From the NCBI RefSeq assembly GCF_001552595.1, contig NZ_BCRM01000035.1, positions 1 through 64,000 of the forward strand: a stretch of 64,000 bases of DNA, given 5' to 3'. Within the stretch, counting starts at the first letter, position 1, and every line of letters begins with the position of its first letter. Below the pieces are notes generated by a model. That model was given only the letters and a program-made list of their open reading frames with translations. It ran no database searches and had not been told where the DNA came from. The position numbers were made by a program, and so were the translations under genes. Shown here piece after piece: positions 18,522-23,343 of this stretch. The DNA comes from Rhodococcus erythropolis NBRC 15567. GTDB lineage: Bacteria; Actinomycetota; Actinomycetes; Mycobacteriales; Mycobacteriaceae.

Positions 18522-19256
18522 ATGCCTAGCTCATTCGTGTGGATCGGGCTGGTGGCCGTGTGGCTGTTCGTCCTGGTGCCGATGCTTGTCAACAAGCGCC
18601 CCAGGATCCGGCAGACGAGTGACGCGGCGCTCGCGACTCGAGTACTCCACCGCGGCGACAGCAACCCTGTTCAGCGCGGGCCGGCAGCAGGACATCGAAG
18701 CGATCCGAACTGGCAACCAGAACCAGTGCGCAGCAGCTACGACGCGGAGGACCAGATGGACACTCACGCAGAAGACGACTACACCGGCGGTCGTGCACCG
18801 GTCGGAGAATTTGTTCCCGTTCGGCGCGGCCGAGGCGGATTCGACCCCGAGGCGGATGCCATCGCCCGGGAGGCGCGGTACGCATTCCGTCAGCGGACAT
18901 TGCTGGGCCTGGCATTCGTCGCGATTCTCTCGGGCGCTCTCGCATTGATCATCTCGCCGATGGTGTGGTGGTTGTTTGTGCTGACCGTGTGCGGCCTCGG
19001 TGGGTACATGGCGTACCTACGTCGGCAGGTTCGGATCGAGCAGGAGATTCGCCGTCGTCGCACCGAGCGCCTCAACCGATCGCGACTCGGAGTCGAATCG
19101 CACACCGACGAAGAGCTGCGCCTGATTCCCGCGCGATTGCGCCGGCCAGGAGCGGTTGTTCTCGAGGTCGACGACGAAGATCCGGCGTTCGATCACTTGG
19201 ATCACTACGAAGAAGAGGTCAGGCACACCGAGATGCGTCGCGCATCCGGTCAGTGA
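18522..19256 (+). CDS. sepX: Divisome protein SepX/GlpR
   Basis: 244 residues. N-terminal membrane helix (SFVWIGLVAVWLFVLVPMLV), a hydrophilic linker, a paired hydrophobic stretch at ~127-165 and a C-terminal charged region (RRRRTERLNR...). This is the actinobacterial GlpR family (Rv0996), named SepX in Streptomyces where it interacts with cell-division proteins. GGGAGGAGG precedes the ATG. Confidence 0.85.
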   Translation: MPSSFVWIGLVAVWLFVLVPMLVNKRPRIRQTSDAALATRVLHRGDSNPVQRGPAAGHRSDPNWQPEPVRSSYDAEDQMDTHAEDDYTGGRAPVGEFVPVRRGRGGFDPEADAIAREARYAFRQRTLLGLAFVAILSGALALIISPMVWWLFVLTVCGLGGYMAYLRRQVRIEQEIRRRRTERLNRSRLGVESHTDEELRLIPARLRRPGAVVLEVDDEDPAFDHLDHYEEEVRHTEMRRASGQ

Positions 19257-19358: not shown

Positions 19359-19434
19359 GGGGCTGTGGCGCAGTTGGTAGCGCGCTTCGTTCGCATCGAA
19401 GAGGTCAGGGGTTCGATTCCCCTCAGCTCCACCA
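19359..19434 (+). tRNA. tRNA-Ala (anticodon CGC)
   Basis: 76-nt cloverleaf with acceptor GGGGCTG/CAGCTCC, D-arm GCGCAGTTGGTAGCGC, anticodon stem CTTCG/CGAAG with loop TTCGCAT (CGC at 34-36), T-arm AGGGGTTCGATTCCCCT and an encoded CCA. It reads alanine GCG codons. The accessory-looking block 19.7-23.4 kb starts just 3' of it. Confidence 0.96.
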
Positions 19435-19483: not shown

Positions 19484-19708
19484 CTGCATTTTCAGAGCCT
19501 GCCCGAATTGTGAAGATTTAGCTCGAGTGTGCGCCGTTTCATACGATTGCGACCGCTGATCCGGACCGTTGAGCTTCCAAGTGAGGGATGATCCTTGGGC
19601 GGATACATGTTTGCCGGAAATGTAACGAGGGTGTGTCCGGTGCGATAGGCACGATGAGTCTGCCGCAGTTTTCCGCAGGTCGGACGTATGTGTCGGGGAG
19701 GAATGTCG

Positions 19709-20746
19709 ATGAGCCAGCCACGACGGCTAGCGATGATGCTTGTTGCTGTGATGTGCCTGATGGGTATCGGCGTCCTTGCCGTATCGGTCTTCCCTGCCAT
19801 CGTCGCCGCCCAACCTGGCGGCAACAGTGGCGGTGGAAACAATGGCAACGGAAACGGCAATTACGGCAACAACGGTGGCAATAACAACGGCAACAACGGC
19901 AACGGTGGCGGTAACAACGGCAACGGTGGCGGTAACAACGGCAACGGCAACTATGGCTGGCATTGCCACCATCACAACTGCGGTACAACCGTAATTCCGA
20001 CGCCGACCACGACGACTGAGCCCACGACCACTGAGCCCACGACGACGACTGAGCCCACGACGACTGAGCCCACGACGACGACTGAGCCCACGACGACTGA
20101 GCCCACGACGACTGAGCCGACCACGACGACTGAGCCGACCACGACGACTGAGCCGACCACGACGACTGAGCCCACGACAACTGAGGCCTCGACCAACCCT
20201 TCGGCGTCGCAACGTCCGAGCAGCAGCGCTTCCCCTGCGACCAACGCAACTTCGCAGACTGAGAGTTCATCTAGCGAAGCAGCCTCCGAGACGACGCAGT
20301 CCCCTTCCGAGTCGCAGTCGAGTTCCGAGCCATCCTCGGAGGCAGCGGTTCCGCCGGCTGGACCGTCTGATCCGCAGGGGCCGTCAGCAGGCGGCGGAGC
20401 ACCTGCACCCTCTGCCGGTGGACCGGCGAACGCTGCGCCGGGCGCAGTCGCAGCACCGTCCGCGCCCGAGGTTCTGGCCGCACCGGCTCCCGTAGCTCCC
20501 CAGGTACCGTCGAACGCTCCGAACGTCGCGAGTCCCAGTGAGAACCCGCAGGCATTCCCGACGGCGTTCACTCAAGGCCTTCCACCGATTCTCAACGCTG
20601 CCGCCGTCGCAGGCGGTGTGGGCGGAATGGCAGTCGTAGCGGCCGGTGCGGGAGCAATGACTTTCCGCGGAGCATCGTTGCAGAAGGCACGTATGGCTGC
20701 CGCACGTGCCGAATTCCTGGCACCCGGATCACAGGGAGGTGCGTGA
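19709..20746 (+). CDS. Secreted low-complexity Asn/Gly and Thr/Glu/Pro repeat protein
   Basis: 345 residues from ATG 19709, which has GGGGAGG seven bases upstream; ATG 19703 is too close to that site. Layout: basic N-terminus and signal or anchor helix (MLVAVMCLMGIGVLAVSVFPAIVAA); Asn/Gly-rich repeats (NNGNGGGNNGNGG); a His/Cys cluster (WHCHHHNC); eleven TTTTEP or TTTEP units; a Ser- then Pro/Ala-rich stretch; and a C-terminal hydrophobic helix (AAAVAGGVGGMAVVAAGAGAM) with a basic tail. It looks like an exported protein anchored at one or both ends, with a flexible, possibly glycosylated stalk. No family recognised. First gene of an operon with the ImmA-like peptidase and a membrane protein. 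Confidence 0.75.
   Translation: MSQPRRLAMMLVAVMCLMGIGVLAVSVFPAIVAAQPGGNSGGGNNGNGNGNYGNNGGNNNGNNGNGGGNNGNGGGNNGNGNYGWHCHHHNCGTTVIPTPTTTTEPTTTEPTTTTEPTTTEPTTTTEPTTTEPTTTEPTTTTEPTTTTEPTTTTEPTTTEASTNPSASQRPSSSASPATNATSQTESSSSEAASETTQSPSESQSSSEPSSEAAVPPAGPSDPQGPSAGGGAPAPSAGGPANAAPGAVAAPSAPEVLAAPAPVAPQVPSNAPNVASPSENPQAFPTAFTQGLPPILNAAAVAGGVGGMAVVAAGAGAMTFRGASLQKARMAAARAEFLAPGSQGGA
20006..20186 (+). repeat. Tandem repeat encoding (T)TTTEP units
   Basis: Eleven imperfect 15- or 18-bp units built on ACGACGACTGAGCCC, all in frame, so slippage would change stalk length without a frameshift. Confidence 0.9.
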
Positions 20747-20749
20747 GTC

Positions 20750-21250
20750 GTGCCGGACAGACGTTCACATCGCCGCGTTCTGGCCGCGGTGGATGCCGTA
20801 TGTGACGCAGCAGCGTCGTCGGAGGCTGTGTCACTGCTTACGGTGGTGCAGACAGTCGCCCGAGAGCGCGGGCGCCCGATCGAGATCGATCTGGAAACCC
20901 CTCTCGCCACCGGAGTGTGCGGTCAGCGCCGGGCCTACGACGACCACGACGTCATCGTTTTGGCTCCCGGGCTACCCAATGTCGAGCGGACTCTGGCACA
21001 TGAGTTGGGGCACATAGTGTTTCGCCACGAGGGTGCCGAGATCGCCGAGGCGACGCTCGAGGTCAGTGATGATTTGATCGCCTACATGTTGAGTCAACGT
21101 TCTCTGCGGCGCAACGAACCCGTGCCGATGGATGACATCGCGGAGTGGGAAGCCGAGACGTTCGCGTCGATGTTGATCATGCGTCTGCGAACGATGAGTG
21201 GCCGTGGGACACCGCTGTCGGTGTTGCGGTACGACGAGGCGATCGGATGA
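20750..21250 (+). CDS. ImmA/IrrE-family metallo-endopeptidase
   Basis: 166 residues, GTG start 20750, three bases after the previous stop. The zinc-protease motif HELGH sits in LAHELGHIVFRHEG (~residues 83-96), and the distal acidic motif EWEAETFASMLIMR provides the third ligand region. Proteins of this family cleave or bind XRE-type repressors in mobile elements (ImmA) or act in stress responses (IrrE). An XRE regulator is encoded convergently 1 kb downstream, a plausible substrate or partner. The ATGA overlap couples it to the membrane protein. Confidence 0.85.
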   Translation: MPDRRSHRRVLAAVDAVCDAAASSEAVSLLTVVQTVARERGRPIEIDLETPLATGVCGQRRAYDDHDVIVLAPGLPNVERTLAHELGHIVFRHEGAEIAEATLEVSDDLIAYMLSQRSLRRNEPVPMDDIAEWEAETFASMLIMRLRTMSGRGTPLSVLRYDEAIG

Positions 21251-22248
21251 TCTTTTGGGCTGTGGCCCTTCTCGTCTGGGTTGCAGCCGGCGCGAGACTG
21301 GGTCGAGTTGTCGCGCGCACCGCGACGCCGTTGCGAATGTCGATGGTCTTCGCAGGCTTCTCGGTCGCATTGTCGTCGACGGTCATGGTGCCGGCGGTGT
21401 GGGACATCGTCGATCGAATTGCGCCGGAGCAACATGCCGCAGCGATGATCGTCATCGTCTTGTGGACCGCGTTGTCTGCGGCCAGTGCAGTCGGCGCCGT
21501 GTCTGCCTGGCCGGTGATGTCGCGTCCAGCTATGCGCGGCCTCGCCACGGTGCTGTACTCGGTGGGGCTCCTGGTGGCGATCGCGGTTCTTTTCGGATAC
21601 CCAGCGCCGGCCCTGATCTTTATCATTGTCGCTCTGTCCCTTGTCATTTCGACGGGGCTACGGCACGTTGCCTGGGCGCCGTTGGGTCGCGGTATCGCAT
21701 TGATCGTGACAGGTTCGTCGGTCTTGCTTGTCGTGGTCGTCGTGATGCTGGTCGAATCGATCGGTGGCACCAGCGCACTCGAATCGGATATCTGGACGGG
21801 CGCAGGGGTGTGGTTCATCGCTGCCTCGAGTGTTCTGATAGCGCTGGGCATCACGTGGGTGCTTCTCGAGACGTGGTTGCGCGCACGACGAGACTTGTAT
21901 CGCCTACGGCGGATGCATGCGCTTCTGGTGAAGCGATTCCCCGAGGTTGTCGACGCGGACAGCGCCGGAAGTACGTCAGTACTCCGGGCATCGGACATGA
22001 TCGCCCAGATCATGGATGCGATGTACATACAGTCCGGCGCCGGGATGTTCGACGTCGGTGGTCAGGAACCGCCCCGGGCAGTTACCGCCCATGCAGGAAT
22101 ACTTGCGGGGTGGATCGCGGATCCATTGGCCTCGGATGTGTTGGACACCAGATGGATTGCGCCACCGGAGAAGATGTCGGCGCGCCGATGGGTGTTGTTG
22201 TTGGCGAAGGAACTCGATGAAACGACAAAAGTAGGTCGACGTTCGTAG
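21247..22248 (+). CDS. Multi-pass membrane protein, MAB_1171c-like
   Basis: 333 residues from ATG 21247, overlapping the peptidase stop (ATGA). About seven hydrophobic helices fill residues 1-210. A soluble C-terminal part contains RRLRRMHALLVKRFPEVVD, reminiscent of the DUF6545/MAB_1171c family, whose genes often sit beside ImmA-type peptidases and XRE regulators in actinobacteria (from memory). Transport or signalling has been suggested; the function is not established. The longer frame from 21145 overlaps the peptidase gene and is rejected. Confidence 0.75.
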   Translation: MIFWAVALLVWVAAGARLGRVVARTATPLRMSMVFAGFSVALSSTVMVPAVWDIVDRIAPEQHAAAMIVIVLWTALSAASAVGAVSAWPVMSRPAMRGLATVLYSVGLLVAIAVLFGYPAPALIFIIVALSLVISTGLRHVAWAPLGRGIALIVTGSSVLLVVVVVMLVESIGGTSALESDIWTGAGVWFIAASSVLIALGITWVLLETWLRARRDLYRLRRMHALLVKRFPEVVDADSAGSTSVLRASDMIAQIMDAMYIQSGAGMFDVGGQEPPRAVTAHAGILAGWIADPLASDVLDTRWIAPPEKMSARRWVLLLAKELDETTKVGRRS

Positions 22249-22258
22249 TCGACCTACT
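22230..22258. terminator. Bidirectional terminator
   Basis: Perfect 11-bp inverted repeat (AGTAGGTCGAC, 7-nt loop) overlapping the last codons of the membrane protein, between convergent genes. Confidence 0.8.
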
Positions 22259-22290
22259 CCATGTCAATTCAGTGCTTCAGCACATTTGCA

Positions 22291-22707
22291 TCAGCGTGAC
22301 GCGTCGGGCGGAACCTCTGGCAAACCCTCACTCGCGCGGAGCTTTTCAGCCATCGTGGTGAGCAGATTCTGCGATTCTTCCGACAGGTCGAATGCGCGGC
22401 TCGAGAGGCGGCGAAGGCCGTAACCTTGGAGCTGCGAGAGCAGTTCGAGGTCGTGATCGATCTTGGCAGCGTAGATGTCGTTGAAGAAGTAGTCGGGCTT
22501 CACCTTGAAGAACCGGGCGAACGCAGCGACTGTCTCGTCCGAGGGGTTGGTGCGCTGTCCCGAGCGGAGCTGCGAGATGTACGGCTTGGAGATCTGATGG
22601 CCGTCTTCGATGAGCGCTGCCGCAACCTCGGCGTTGGTGTGGGGTTTGCGCCCCGGAGGATGAACACTGTCGAACAGTTTGTTCAATCGTTCTGCAAAGT
22701 CAGCCAT
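22291..22707 (-). CDS. EspR-like XRE-family transcriptional regulator
   Basis: 138 residues. The N-terminal HTH with FAERLNKLFDSVHPPGRKPHTNAEVA and SKPYISQLRSGQRTNPS closely follows M. tuberculosis EspR, a nucleoid-like regulator of ESX-1 and cell-wall genes. The C-terminal half (KIDHDLELLSQLQGYGLRRLSSRAF) is the dimerisation region. It is convergent with the ImmA-peptidase operon, the likely functional partner, and nested palindromes lie upstream of its start. Confidence 0.85.
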   Translation of the reverse strand: MADFAERLNKLFDSVHPPGRKPHTNAEVAAALIEDGHQISKPYISQLRSGQRTNPSDETVAAFARFFKVKPDYFFNDIYAAKIDHDLELLSQLQGYGLRRLSSRAFDLSEESQNLLTTMAEKLRASEGLPEVPPDASR

Positions 22708-23187: not shown

Positions 23188-23343
23188 ATGAAACACACGA
23201 TGAGCGATGACGAACTGCGCCGCGCGATCCGTGAAATCCAGGATCGAGCCCACGACGCACGCAAGCGTGGGGACGATGTAGCGGCGGAAGAACTCGACCG
23301 TACGGTCAGGGGCTATCAAGAGCAGATGGCTCAGCGTCTGTAG
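23188..23343 (+). CDS. Small charged hypothetical protein (51 residues)
   Basis: Frame MKHTMSDDELRRAIREIQD...GYQEQMAQRL, strongly charged and predicted helical, with normal high-G+C codon use. ATG 23188 or ATG 23200 (MSDDELRR) could start it. No family recognised. It lies between the EspR-like regulator and the SDR gene. Confidence 0.55.
   Translation: MKHTMSDDELRRAIREIQDRAHDARKRGDDVAAEELDRTVRGYQEQMAQRL

What the first reader, a model, noticed from the sequence alone, without database searches (positions are those of the whole stretch)
19709..22707. Candidate system: repeat-rich surface protein, ImmA-type protease, membrane protein and EspR-like regulator
Three tightly coupled genes (an exported Asn/Gly and TTTEP-repeat protein, an HELGH metallopeptidase and a roughly seven-helix membrane protein) face an XRE regulator that resembles M. 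tuberculosis EspR. ImmA-like proteases usually inactivate XRE repressors. One model: a membrane signal activates the protease, which clears the EspR-like repressor and changes surface-protein expression. The module looks inserted between sepX/tRNA-Ala and backbone genes. I know of no described function for this combination.
Basis: partly seen in the sequence, partly recalled or inferred. Interest (0 to 1): 0.75.

Follow-up and report, generated by a model that had tools for sequence, protein, structure and literature searches.

The report
Envelope cassette beside EspR-type regulator
Three coupled genes (a stalk-like surface protein, a metalloprotease of a kind that cuts gene regulators, and a seven-helix membrane protein) come and go as one block beside a relative of EspR, a global gene regulator of mycobacteria, which suggests an unstudied route by which signals from the cell envelope control that regulator.

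Summary
In a Rhodococcus genome, SURF (19709-20746), an ImmA/IrrE-type protease PROT (20750-21250) and a 7-TM protein MEMB (21247-22248) are translationally coupled and converge on an EspR-family gene ESPR (22291-22707, minus). Co-conservation is very strong. In 201 genomes of the GTDB family, 74 of 74 strong PROT places have an EspR-like gene within 4 kb (about 0.14 expected). In Mycobacterium, 80 of 84 PROT places converge on EspR itself; contig breaks explain the other four. The trio is absent as a block, ESPR staying behind, in three gene neighbourhoods; ESPR is therefore backbone and SURF-PROT-MEMB the variable cassette. SURF is a single-pass protein with a variable ectodomain and a conserved TM plus cytosolic tail. 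PROT models on IrrE, PprI and CapP, proteases of XRE-type repressors. MEMB models as an N-out, C-in seven-helix, receptor-like protein, and is a diverged relative of the MAB_1171c 'putative transporter' family, itself linked to protease and EspR-like genes across actinobacteria. Best reading: an envelope-signal-gated protease that controls an EspR-type regulator. Cleavage, signal and direction are not shown.

The parts
18522..19256 (+). sepX/glpR divisome gene, upstream backbone
   Evidence: NCBIfam SepX_GlpR_1 3e-94
19359..19434 (+). tRNA-Ala (CGC), upstream backbone
   Evidence: ARAGORN, Rfam RF00005
19709..20746 (+). SURF: exported single-pass protein with variable low-complexity ectodomain (345 aa)
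   Evidence: ORF (whose longest version starts at 19688); tail under purifying selection, third-position changes dominate; orthologs
19964..19981 (+). CHHHNC Cys/His cluster in the SURF ectodomain
   Evidence: sequence; similar Cys/His clusters in several other Rhodococcus SURFs and L055, not general
20002..20178 (+). TTTEP/TTEP coding repeat array of SURF
   Evidence: TRF period 33, 5.3 copies, score 253
20588..20743 (+). conserved SURF transmembrane helix and cytosolic tail (aa 294-345)
   Evidence: alignment A4; profile search
20750..21250 (+). PROT: ImmA/IrrE-type (M78) metalloprotease, 166 aa
20999..21013 (+). HELGH zinc motif of PROT; a downstream EWEAETFA stretch follows at 21143-21166
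   Evidence: H84, E85, H88, E132 invariant in 24 of 24 rows and 42 of 42 rows; positions checked
21247..22248 (+). MEMB: seven-TM protein with a long seventh helix and a cytosolic helical domain, 333 aa
   Evidence: AF2 pLDDT 90.5, pTM 0.83; NF042915 2.6e-6, below cut-off; charge pattern
22228..22260 (.). 13-bp palindromic stem between the convergent genes, possible terminator
   Evidence: terminator scan; number found is not above shuffles, so weak
22291..22707 (-). ESPR: EspR-family XRE regulator, 138 aa
   Evidence: PDB EspR E 1.2e-35; 86-100% identical in L037-L054
23486..24331 (+). SDR oxidoreductase, downstream backbone
   Evidence: NF005881 4e-146; next to ESPR with the trio (L037-L047) and without it (L077, L078, L080, L081)

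Best explanation
SURF-PROT-MEMB is an accessory signalling cassette for an EspR-type global regulator. An envelope state is sensed by the seven-helix protein MEMB, in most lineages together with the single-pass stalk protein SURF. MEMB passes the signal through its long seventh helix and cytosolic helical domain to the small soluble metalloprotease PROT, which cuts or otherwise inactivates the EspR-like regulator and so retunes envelope and surface genes. Shown here: gene coupling, linkage, clean presence and absence, predicted folds and conserved catalytic residues. Inferred: sensing, MEMB-PROT contact, cleavage of ESPR, and the output.
For: 74 of 74 strong PROT places (71 genomes) in 201 family genomes have an EspR-like gene within 4 kb, 67 convergent downstream and 7 same-strand upstream, so the link survives rearrangement. 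The regulator does not need PROT (74 of 114 ESPR matches with PROT, 40 without). In 148 genomes of the Mycobacterium genus EspR is in 146 and PROT in 83; 80 of 84 PROT places converge on EspR, and the other 4 are cut by contig ends. Block absence beside ESPR: in 25 of 25 trio-lacking Mycobacterium loci EspR lies 72-213 bp from the next gene, and in the 24 trio-bearing loci with both flanks in view the cassette lies between these two genes; likewise in the Rhodococcus and Nocardia-type neighbourhoods. A second PROT and MEMB-like pair with an EspR-like gene is in the same genome. Class-wide, 27 of 30 MAB_1171c-family loci hold a PROT-like and 21 of 30 an EspR-like ORF within about 1.5 kb (two of the 30 are the Mycobacterium trio itself). 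The five best structural matches of PROT are IrrE, PprI and CapP, proteases that cut XRE-type regulators (PMC7907104 abstract; PMC10904395 start of abstract and passages). MEMB has receptor-like topology. In the EspR ChIP study, targets are mainly cell-wall and surface functions and EspR-delta-10 is called dimerization deficient (PMC3315491, passages).
Confidence: 0.55

Rival explanations
1. EspR is upstream only: it regulates the cassette, and PROT's real substrate is the conserved cytosolic tail of SURF or MEMB itself. The cassette is then an envelope proteolysis unit that merely sits beside its regulator.
For: SURF's conserved TM and tail are coupled to PROT (42 of 74 PROT places have SURF upstream within 4 kb); the tail is on the same side of the membrane as PROT (inference). 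Two EspR boxes lie upstream of SURF in the window.
Against: Plasmid-type and more distant loci (no SURF tail in L058-L076) and 3 of 41 named loci keep PROT and an EspR-like gene without SURF next to PROT. The EspR box is upstream of SURF in 3 of 17 loci only, all near-identical genomes.
Confidence: 0.22
2. A toxin-antitoxin-like or selfish pair: PROT is toxic when released and the XRE protein is its antitoxin.
For: COG2856-Xre pairs were listed as candidate toxin-antitoxin systems (PMC2701414 passages); PROT relatives occur on plasmids, 39 plasmid records.
Against: The regulator is kept without a strong PROT match in 29 of 100 family genomes in the pasted list and 64 of 146 Mycobacterium genomes; it forms its own convergent unit in 67 of 74 cases, and the trio occupies stable orthologous places. 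A 7-TM partner is not usual for such pairs (recalled).
Confidence: 0.1
3. Passive linkage: the genes stay together through shared ancestry and have no functional relation.
For: Within one lineage the neighbourhood is inherited with its flanks; most trio-minus mycobacteria form one clade (24 of 25).
Against: The linkage recurs in several different neighbourhoods, in two gene orders, on plasmids (L061, L063) and in other families of the class.
Confidence: 0.06

Closest known systems
IrrE/PprI-DdrO of Deinococcus
   Different: PROT has only the 166-aa protease domain; PprI carries HTH and GAF-like parts and responds to ssDNA, and IrrE to zinc (PMC10904395 passages, PMC7907104 abstract). Here a 7-TM protein and a stalk protein accompany the protease.
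ImmA-ImmR of ICEBs1 and COG2856-Xre pairs
   Same: A stand-alone ImmA-size protease next to an XRE regulator (PMC2701414 passages)
   Different: No sign that the window cassette is on an ICE; the regulator is EspR-type, usually convergent, and conserved without the protease
CapP-CapH of CBASS
   Different: No defence effector was recognised among the four proteins of the locus
EspR of M. tuberculosis
   Same: Window ESPR aligns over residues 3-129 with the EspR chains. In Mycobacterium the cassette sits beside EspR itself.
   Different: Many mycobacteria carry EspR without the cassette (64 of 146). The window gene lies at sepX-SDR, not sodA, so orthology is unproven.
MAB_1171c family 'putative transporter' (NF042915) / DUF6545
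   Same: Weak kinship with MEMB (2.6e-6; 23 of 41 relatives below 1e-3) and the same gene partners
   Different: MEMB scores 26.7 bits against a cut-off of 100, so it is a diverged relative. The model looks like a receptor.

Membership tests
ImmA/IrrE (Peptidase M78) protease | Family profile above curated cut-off | tested here: met
   PF06114 24.0 bits against cut-off 22
ImmA/IrrE (Peptidase M78) protease | HExxH plus downstream Glu conserved | tested here: met
   H84, E85, H88, E132 invariant in 24 of 24 and 42 of 42; that E132 is the third metal ligand is recalled from the family pattern
ImmA/IrrE (Peptidase M78) protease | IrrE-like fold | tested here: met
ImmA-XRE derepression system | XRE regulator gene linked to the protease | tested here: met
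   74 of 74 places
ImmA-XRE derepression system | Protease cleaves the regulator | not testable with these tools
   needs biochemistry
EspR | Homology over the full chain | tested here: met
   residues 3-129 of 138, E 1.2e-35
EspR | Orthologous gene neighbourhood (sodA / Rv3850-like) | tested here: not met
   window ESPR lies between the trio and SDR; mycobacterial EspR lies by sodA
EspR | Nucleoid-associated, global DNA binding | not testable with these tools
   needs ChIP
MAB_1171c family (NF042915) | Score above curated cut-off of 100 bits | tested here: not met
   26.7 bits
DUF6545 (PF20182) | Score above gathering cut-off 24.4 | tested here: not met
   10.7 bits; 11 of 41 relatives below E 0.01
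GPCR-like seven-helix fold | Structural similarity well above unrelated helical bundles | tested here: inconclusive
Type II toxin-antitoxin | Toxicity of one partner, neutralised by the other | not testable with these tools
   genomic pattern argues against

The most novel reading that the evidence does not exclude
A receptor-gated proteolytic circuit, common in Rhodococcus, Nocardia and many mycobacteria, controls the EspR-type nucleoid regulator from the cell envelope: a stalk protein with a conserved cytosolic tail and a GPCR-like seven-helix protein gate a bare ImmA-type protease. One large mycobacterial clade lost the whole circuit and kept EspR, which would leave EspR without its original off-switch there.
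Probability: 0.33. Interest if true: 0.86.

Novelty: new variant of a known kind. Interest (0 to 1): 0.66.

Why it matters
EspR is studied as a global regulator of the M. tuberculosis envelope and ESX-1 (PMC3315491). It would also give a role to MAB_1171c/DUF6545 membrane proteins, now called putative transporters, as partners of ImmA-type proteases across actinobacteria, and would add membrane signalling to the inputs known to me for ImmA/IrrE proteases (ssDNA, zinc, partner proteins).

Tried and rejected
EspR box (TTTGC[TC][GA], PMC3315491) as sign of EspR control of SURF: present upstream of SURF in 3 of 17 loci, all near-identical genomes. Upstream of ESPR 9 of 21 regions hold 12 sites against about 4 expected from shuffles. 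The script stopped with an error before its control promoters were counted, so I draw nothing from the second figure (my note says 16 SURF regions, the output shows 17).

Four-gene island inserted at the tRNA: rejected. In L078 and L081 sepX, tRNA-Ala and ESPR follow each other without the trio, so ESPR is backbone.

Antisense ORF 19972-20571 (199 aa), which my simple gene caller preferred: rejected, because changes in the SURF tail follow the plus-strand codons and the longest antisense ORFs in 11 relatives vary from 144 to 401 aa.

Conserved extracytoplasmic Cys/His cluster as a general metal sensor: not general, absent in most Nocardia SURFs and several others.

Phage origin: two Adler phage records at 28.6% identity only. 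PADLOC hits were weak. An EspR identical to that of M. tuberculosis was not among the 25 trio-lacking Mycobacterium loci (best 87%), so the state of that species rests on recalled gene order (sodA, Rv3847, Rv3848, espR, Rv3850) and is not claimed from a call. No viral-structure search was run for MEMB. The cytosolic domain of MEMB (about 230-333) was not modelled or searched alone. Profiles of PROT and MEMB found no solved structure by sequence.

The four Mycobacterium PROT places without EspR nearby were looked at: each runs into a contig end inside or just after MEMB. G334 has the end of EspR at the contig edge; in G397, G370 and G334 the separately listed EspR lies at or within about 0.5 kb of the end of its own contig; G385 (63% complete) has no EspR match.

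Circularity to note: profile A2 (ESPR) was built from genes found beside PROT; profile A4 (SURF tail) from genes upstream of PROT. Counts use the listed rows only (lists were cut by the tool): PROT rows to E 8.3e-24, and 126 ESPR rows, of which the first 114 (to E 2.6e-31) were counted. SURF was examined in 41 of the 49 named loci. My note gives 26 trio-lacking Mycobacterium loci; the output shows 25, used here. My note gives 43 SURF hits upstream of PROT; these are 43 SURF rows at 42 PROT places (G046 has two).

Not in print, as far as searched: EspR with ImmA 0 papers, DUF6545 0, MAB_1171c 1 (passages read), ImmA IrrE + Mycobacterium + XRE 0. Only open PMC papers are held. Searches gave nothing on this combination in their listings.
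Full report
What is there. Three plus-strand genes are coupled: SURF 19709-20746, PROT 20750-21250 and MEMB 21247-22248. A minus-strand gene, ESPR 22291-22707, converges on them. Upstream are sepX and tRNA-Ala, downstream an SDR gene.

SURF is more than a repeat protein. Its ectodomain is variable and rich in Pro, Thr, Ala, Gly or Ser, and differs in repeat number and type even between close genomes, but the TM helix and cytosolic tail are conserved (alignment A4). In the tail, window against its relatives, third codon positions take most of the changes (40 against 16 and 9 for L039), so the plus-strand frame is real. A profile of the tail hit 46 places in 44 of 201 family genomes: 43 lie just upstream of PROT on the same strand, at 42 PROT places. 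Of the other three, two are in genomes that have PROT (G057, where SURF is missing beside PROT, and a second copy in G202), and one (G204) is a weak 31-residue match in a genome without a strong PROT. Mycobacterial SURFs have a different but equally conserved tail (GYRQAKAG...RF). SURF was found upstream of PROT in 38 of 41 named loci examined (49 were returned), and not in L122, L132 and L134.

Linkage. With a PROT profile, 201 family genomes gave 74 listed places at E 8.3e-24 or better, in 71 genomes. All 74 have an EspR-like gene within 4 kb, 67 convergent downstream and 7 same-strand upstream; about 0.14 would be expected by chance. MEMB was detected beside 50 and SURF beside 42; profile A3 for MEMB is narrow and misses diverged members, for example in Mycobacterium, where one search shows them. 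The reverse does not hold: of 114 strong ESPR matches 40 have no PROT nearby. ESPR itself is the best conserved protein of the set (in L037-L054: ESPR 86-100% identical to the window, PROT 55-99%, MEMB 34-99%) and stays well conserved where the trio is absent (85-96% in L077-L082).

Presence and absence as a block. Rhodococcus-type neighbourhood: sepX, trio, ESPR, SDR in L037-L046, with tRNA-Ala in the four checked; sepX, tRNA-Ala, ESPR, SDR without the trio in L078 and L081, and ESPR-SDR without it in L077 and L080. Nocardia-type neighbourhood: SDR gene, trio, ESPR, thiolase-like gene (L050; thiolase is a recalled label) against SDR genes, ESPR, thiolase-like gene in L082. Mycobacterium: sodA, Rv3847-like, UPF0016-like, EspR, Rv3850-like (names recalled). 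In 25 of 25 trio-lacking loci EspR lies 72-213 bp from the Rv3850-like gene (between alignment ends); in 24 trio-bearing loci with both flanks in view MEMB and PROT, and usually SURF, lie between them, and two further loci run off their contigs. Four of those 24 leave under 300 bp between PROT and the Rv3850-like gene, too little for SURF. Across 148 genomes of the genus EspR is found in 146 and PROT in 83 (84 places): 80 converge on EspR and the other 4 run into contig ends inside or just after MEMB; 64 genomes have EspR alone. On a tree of neighbour proteins and EspR 24 of 25 trio-minus loci form one clade (support 98, quick tree), and one (L154) stands apart. The named trio-bearing mycobacteria (M. 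rhodesiae, M. elephantis, M. senegalense, M. setense, M. llatzerense, M. pyrenivorans and others) are rapid growers as far as I recall. That the minus clade is the slow growers is a guess.

Wider system. The same genome has a second PROT with a seven-segment membrane protein that a profile comparison joins to MEMB (98.4%, E 4.5e-15) and a shorter convergent EspR-like gene (C29); that membrane protein matches no NCBIfam model. PROT relatives occur on 39 plasmid records, 32 of them Rhodococcus; in two whose surroundings I read, L061 (R. jostii RHA1) and L063 (R. oxybenzonivorans), an EspR-like gene converges on PROT, and the L061 membrane protein is MAB_1171c-like (1.2e-16). In 148 genomes of the class, 25 carry the MAB_1171c family. 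Of 30 loci fetched, 27 hold a PROT-like and 21 an EspR-like ORF within about 1.5 kb; in 15 of these 21 the order is regulator, protease, membrane protein in one direction (my reading of the coordinates). Two of the 30 are the Mycobacterium trio itself. A MAB_1171c knockout in M. abscessus formed about half the biofilm mass (PMC8707978, passages), the only phenotype I found.

Mechanism. PROT's nearest structural relatives cut XRE-type regulators: PprI/IrrE cuts DdrO and CapP cuts CapH, both activated by ssDNA, IrrE also by zinc (PMC10904395 start of abstract and passages, PMC7907104 abstract). PROT is the bare protease domain, and the partner that never leaves it in the family list is an EspR-like regulator. 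The simplest reading is that MEMB, with SURF where present, replaces the built-in sensor and gates PROT, which acts on ESPR. In the EspR ChIP study cell-wall and surface functions are over-represented among the targets, EspR binds upstream of its own gene, and EspR-delta-10 is called dimerization deficient (PMC3315491, passages; that the ten residues are C-terminal is recalled), so a cut near the C terminus would suffice to disable it (inference). What is not shown: any contact, any cut, the signal, and the direction of the effect.

Verdict. Observation confirmed, interpretation partly supported. It is a new variant of the ImmA-XRE kind: the regulator is EspR-type, the membrane protein receptor-like, and a stalk protein is added in Rhodococcus, Nocardia and mycobacteria. 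No paper found in the searched library joins these.

Noticed in passing
G000:C29:70333-72841 (L002, L067): Second PROT and MEMB-like pair with a shorter, convergent EspR-like gene and no SURF tail detected, next to a gene of the opposite strand that looks like a DUF3068 membrane protein (recalled name); related sets sit on Rhodococcus plasmids.
   Followed up: partly
window 23188-23343: Small ORF (51 aa, MKHTMSDDELRRAIREIQDRA...) between ESPR and SDR with close counterparts in L078, L080 and L081; a conserved small protein without a name here.
   Followed up: no
G000:C1:1075266 and C1:1335654: Two further EspR-family genes (55% and 49% identical to ESPR) without a PROT match nearby, so this Rhodococcus has several EspR-like proteins.
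   Followed up: no
window 19964-19981: CHHHNC cluster in the SURF ectodomain, with similar Cys/His clusters in several other Rhodococcus SURFs and L055; possible metal site, not general in the family.
   Followed up: partly
L096 (G057:C1:2150500-2162500): In G057 the SURF gene is not beside PROT but elsewhere in the genome, about 506 aa with the same kind of tail: SURF can be kept in trans.
   Followed up: partly
L043, L044, L045: ESPR lies 3.0-3.4 kb from the PROT match start instead of about 1.6 kb; something lies between MEMB and ESPR there that I did not identify.
   Followed up: no
L166-L195: MAB_1171c family, named putative transporter by NCBI, is found beside ImmA-type protease genes in 27 of 30 loci; the name may mislead.
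   Followed up: partly
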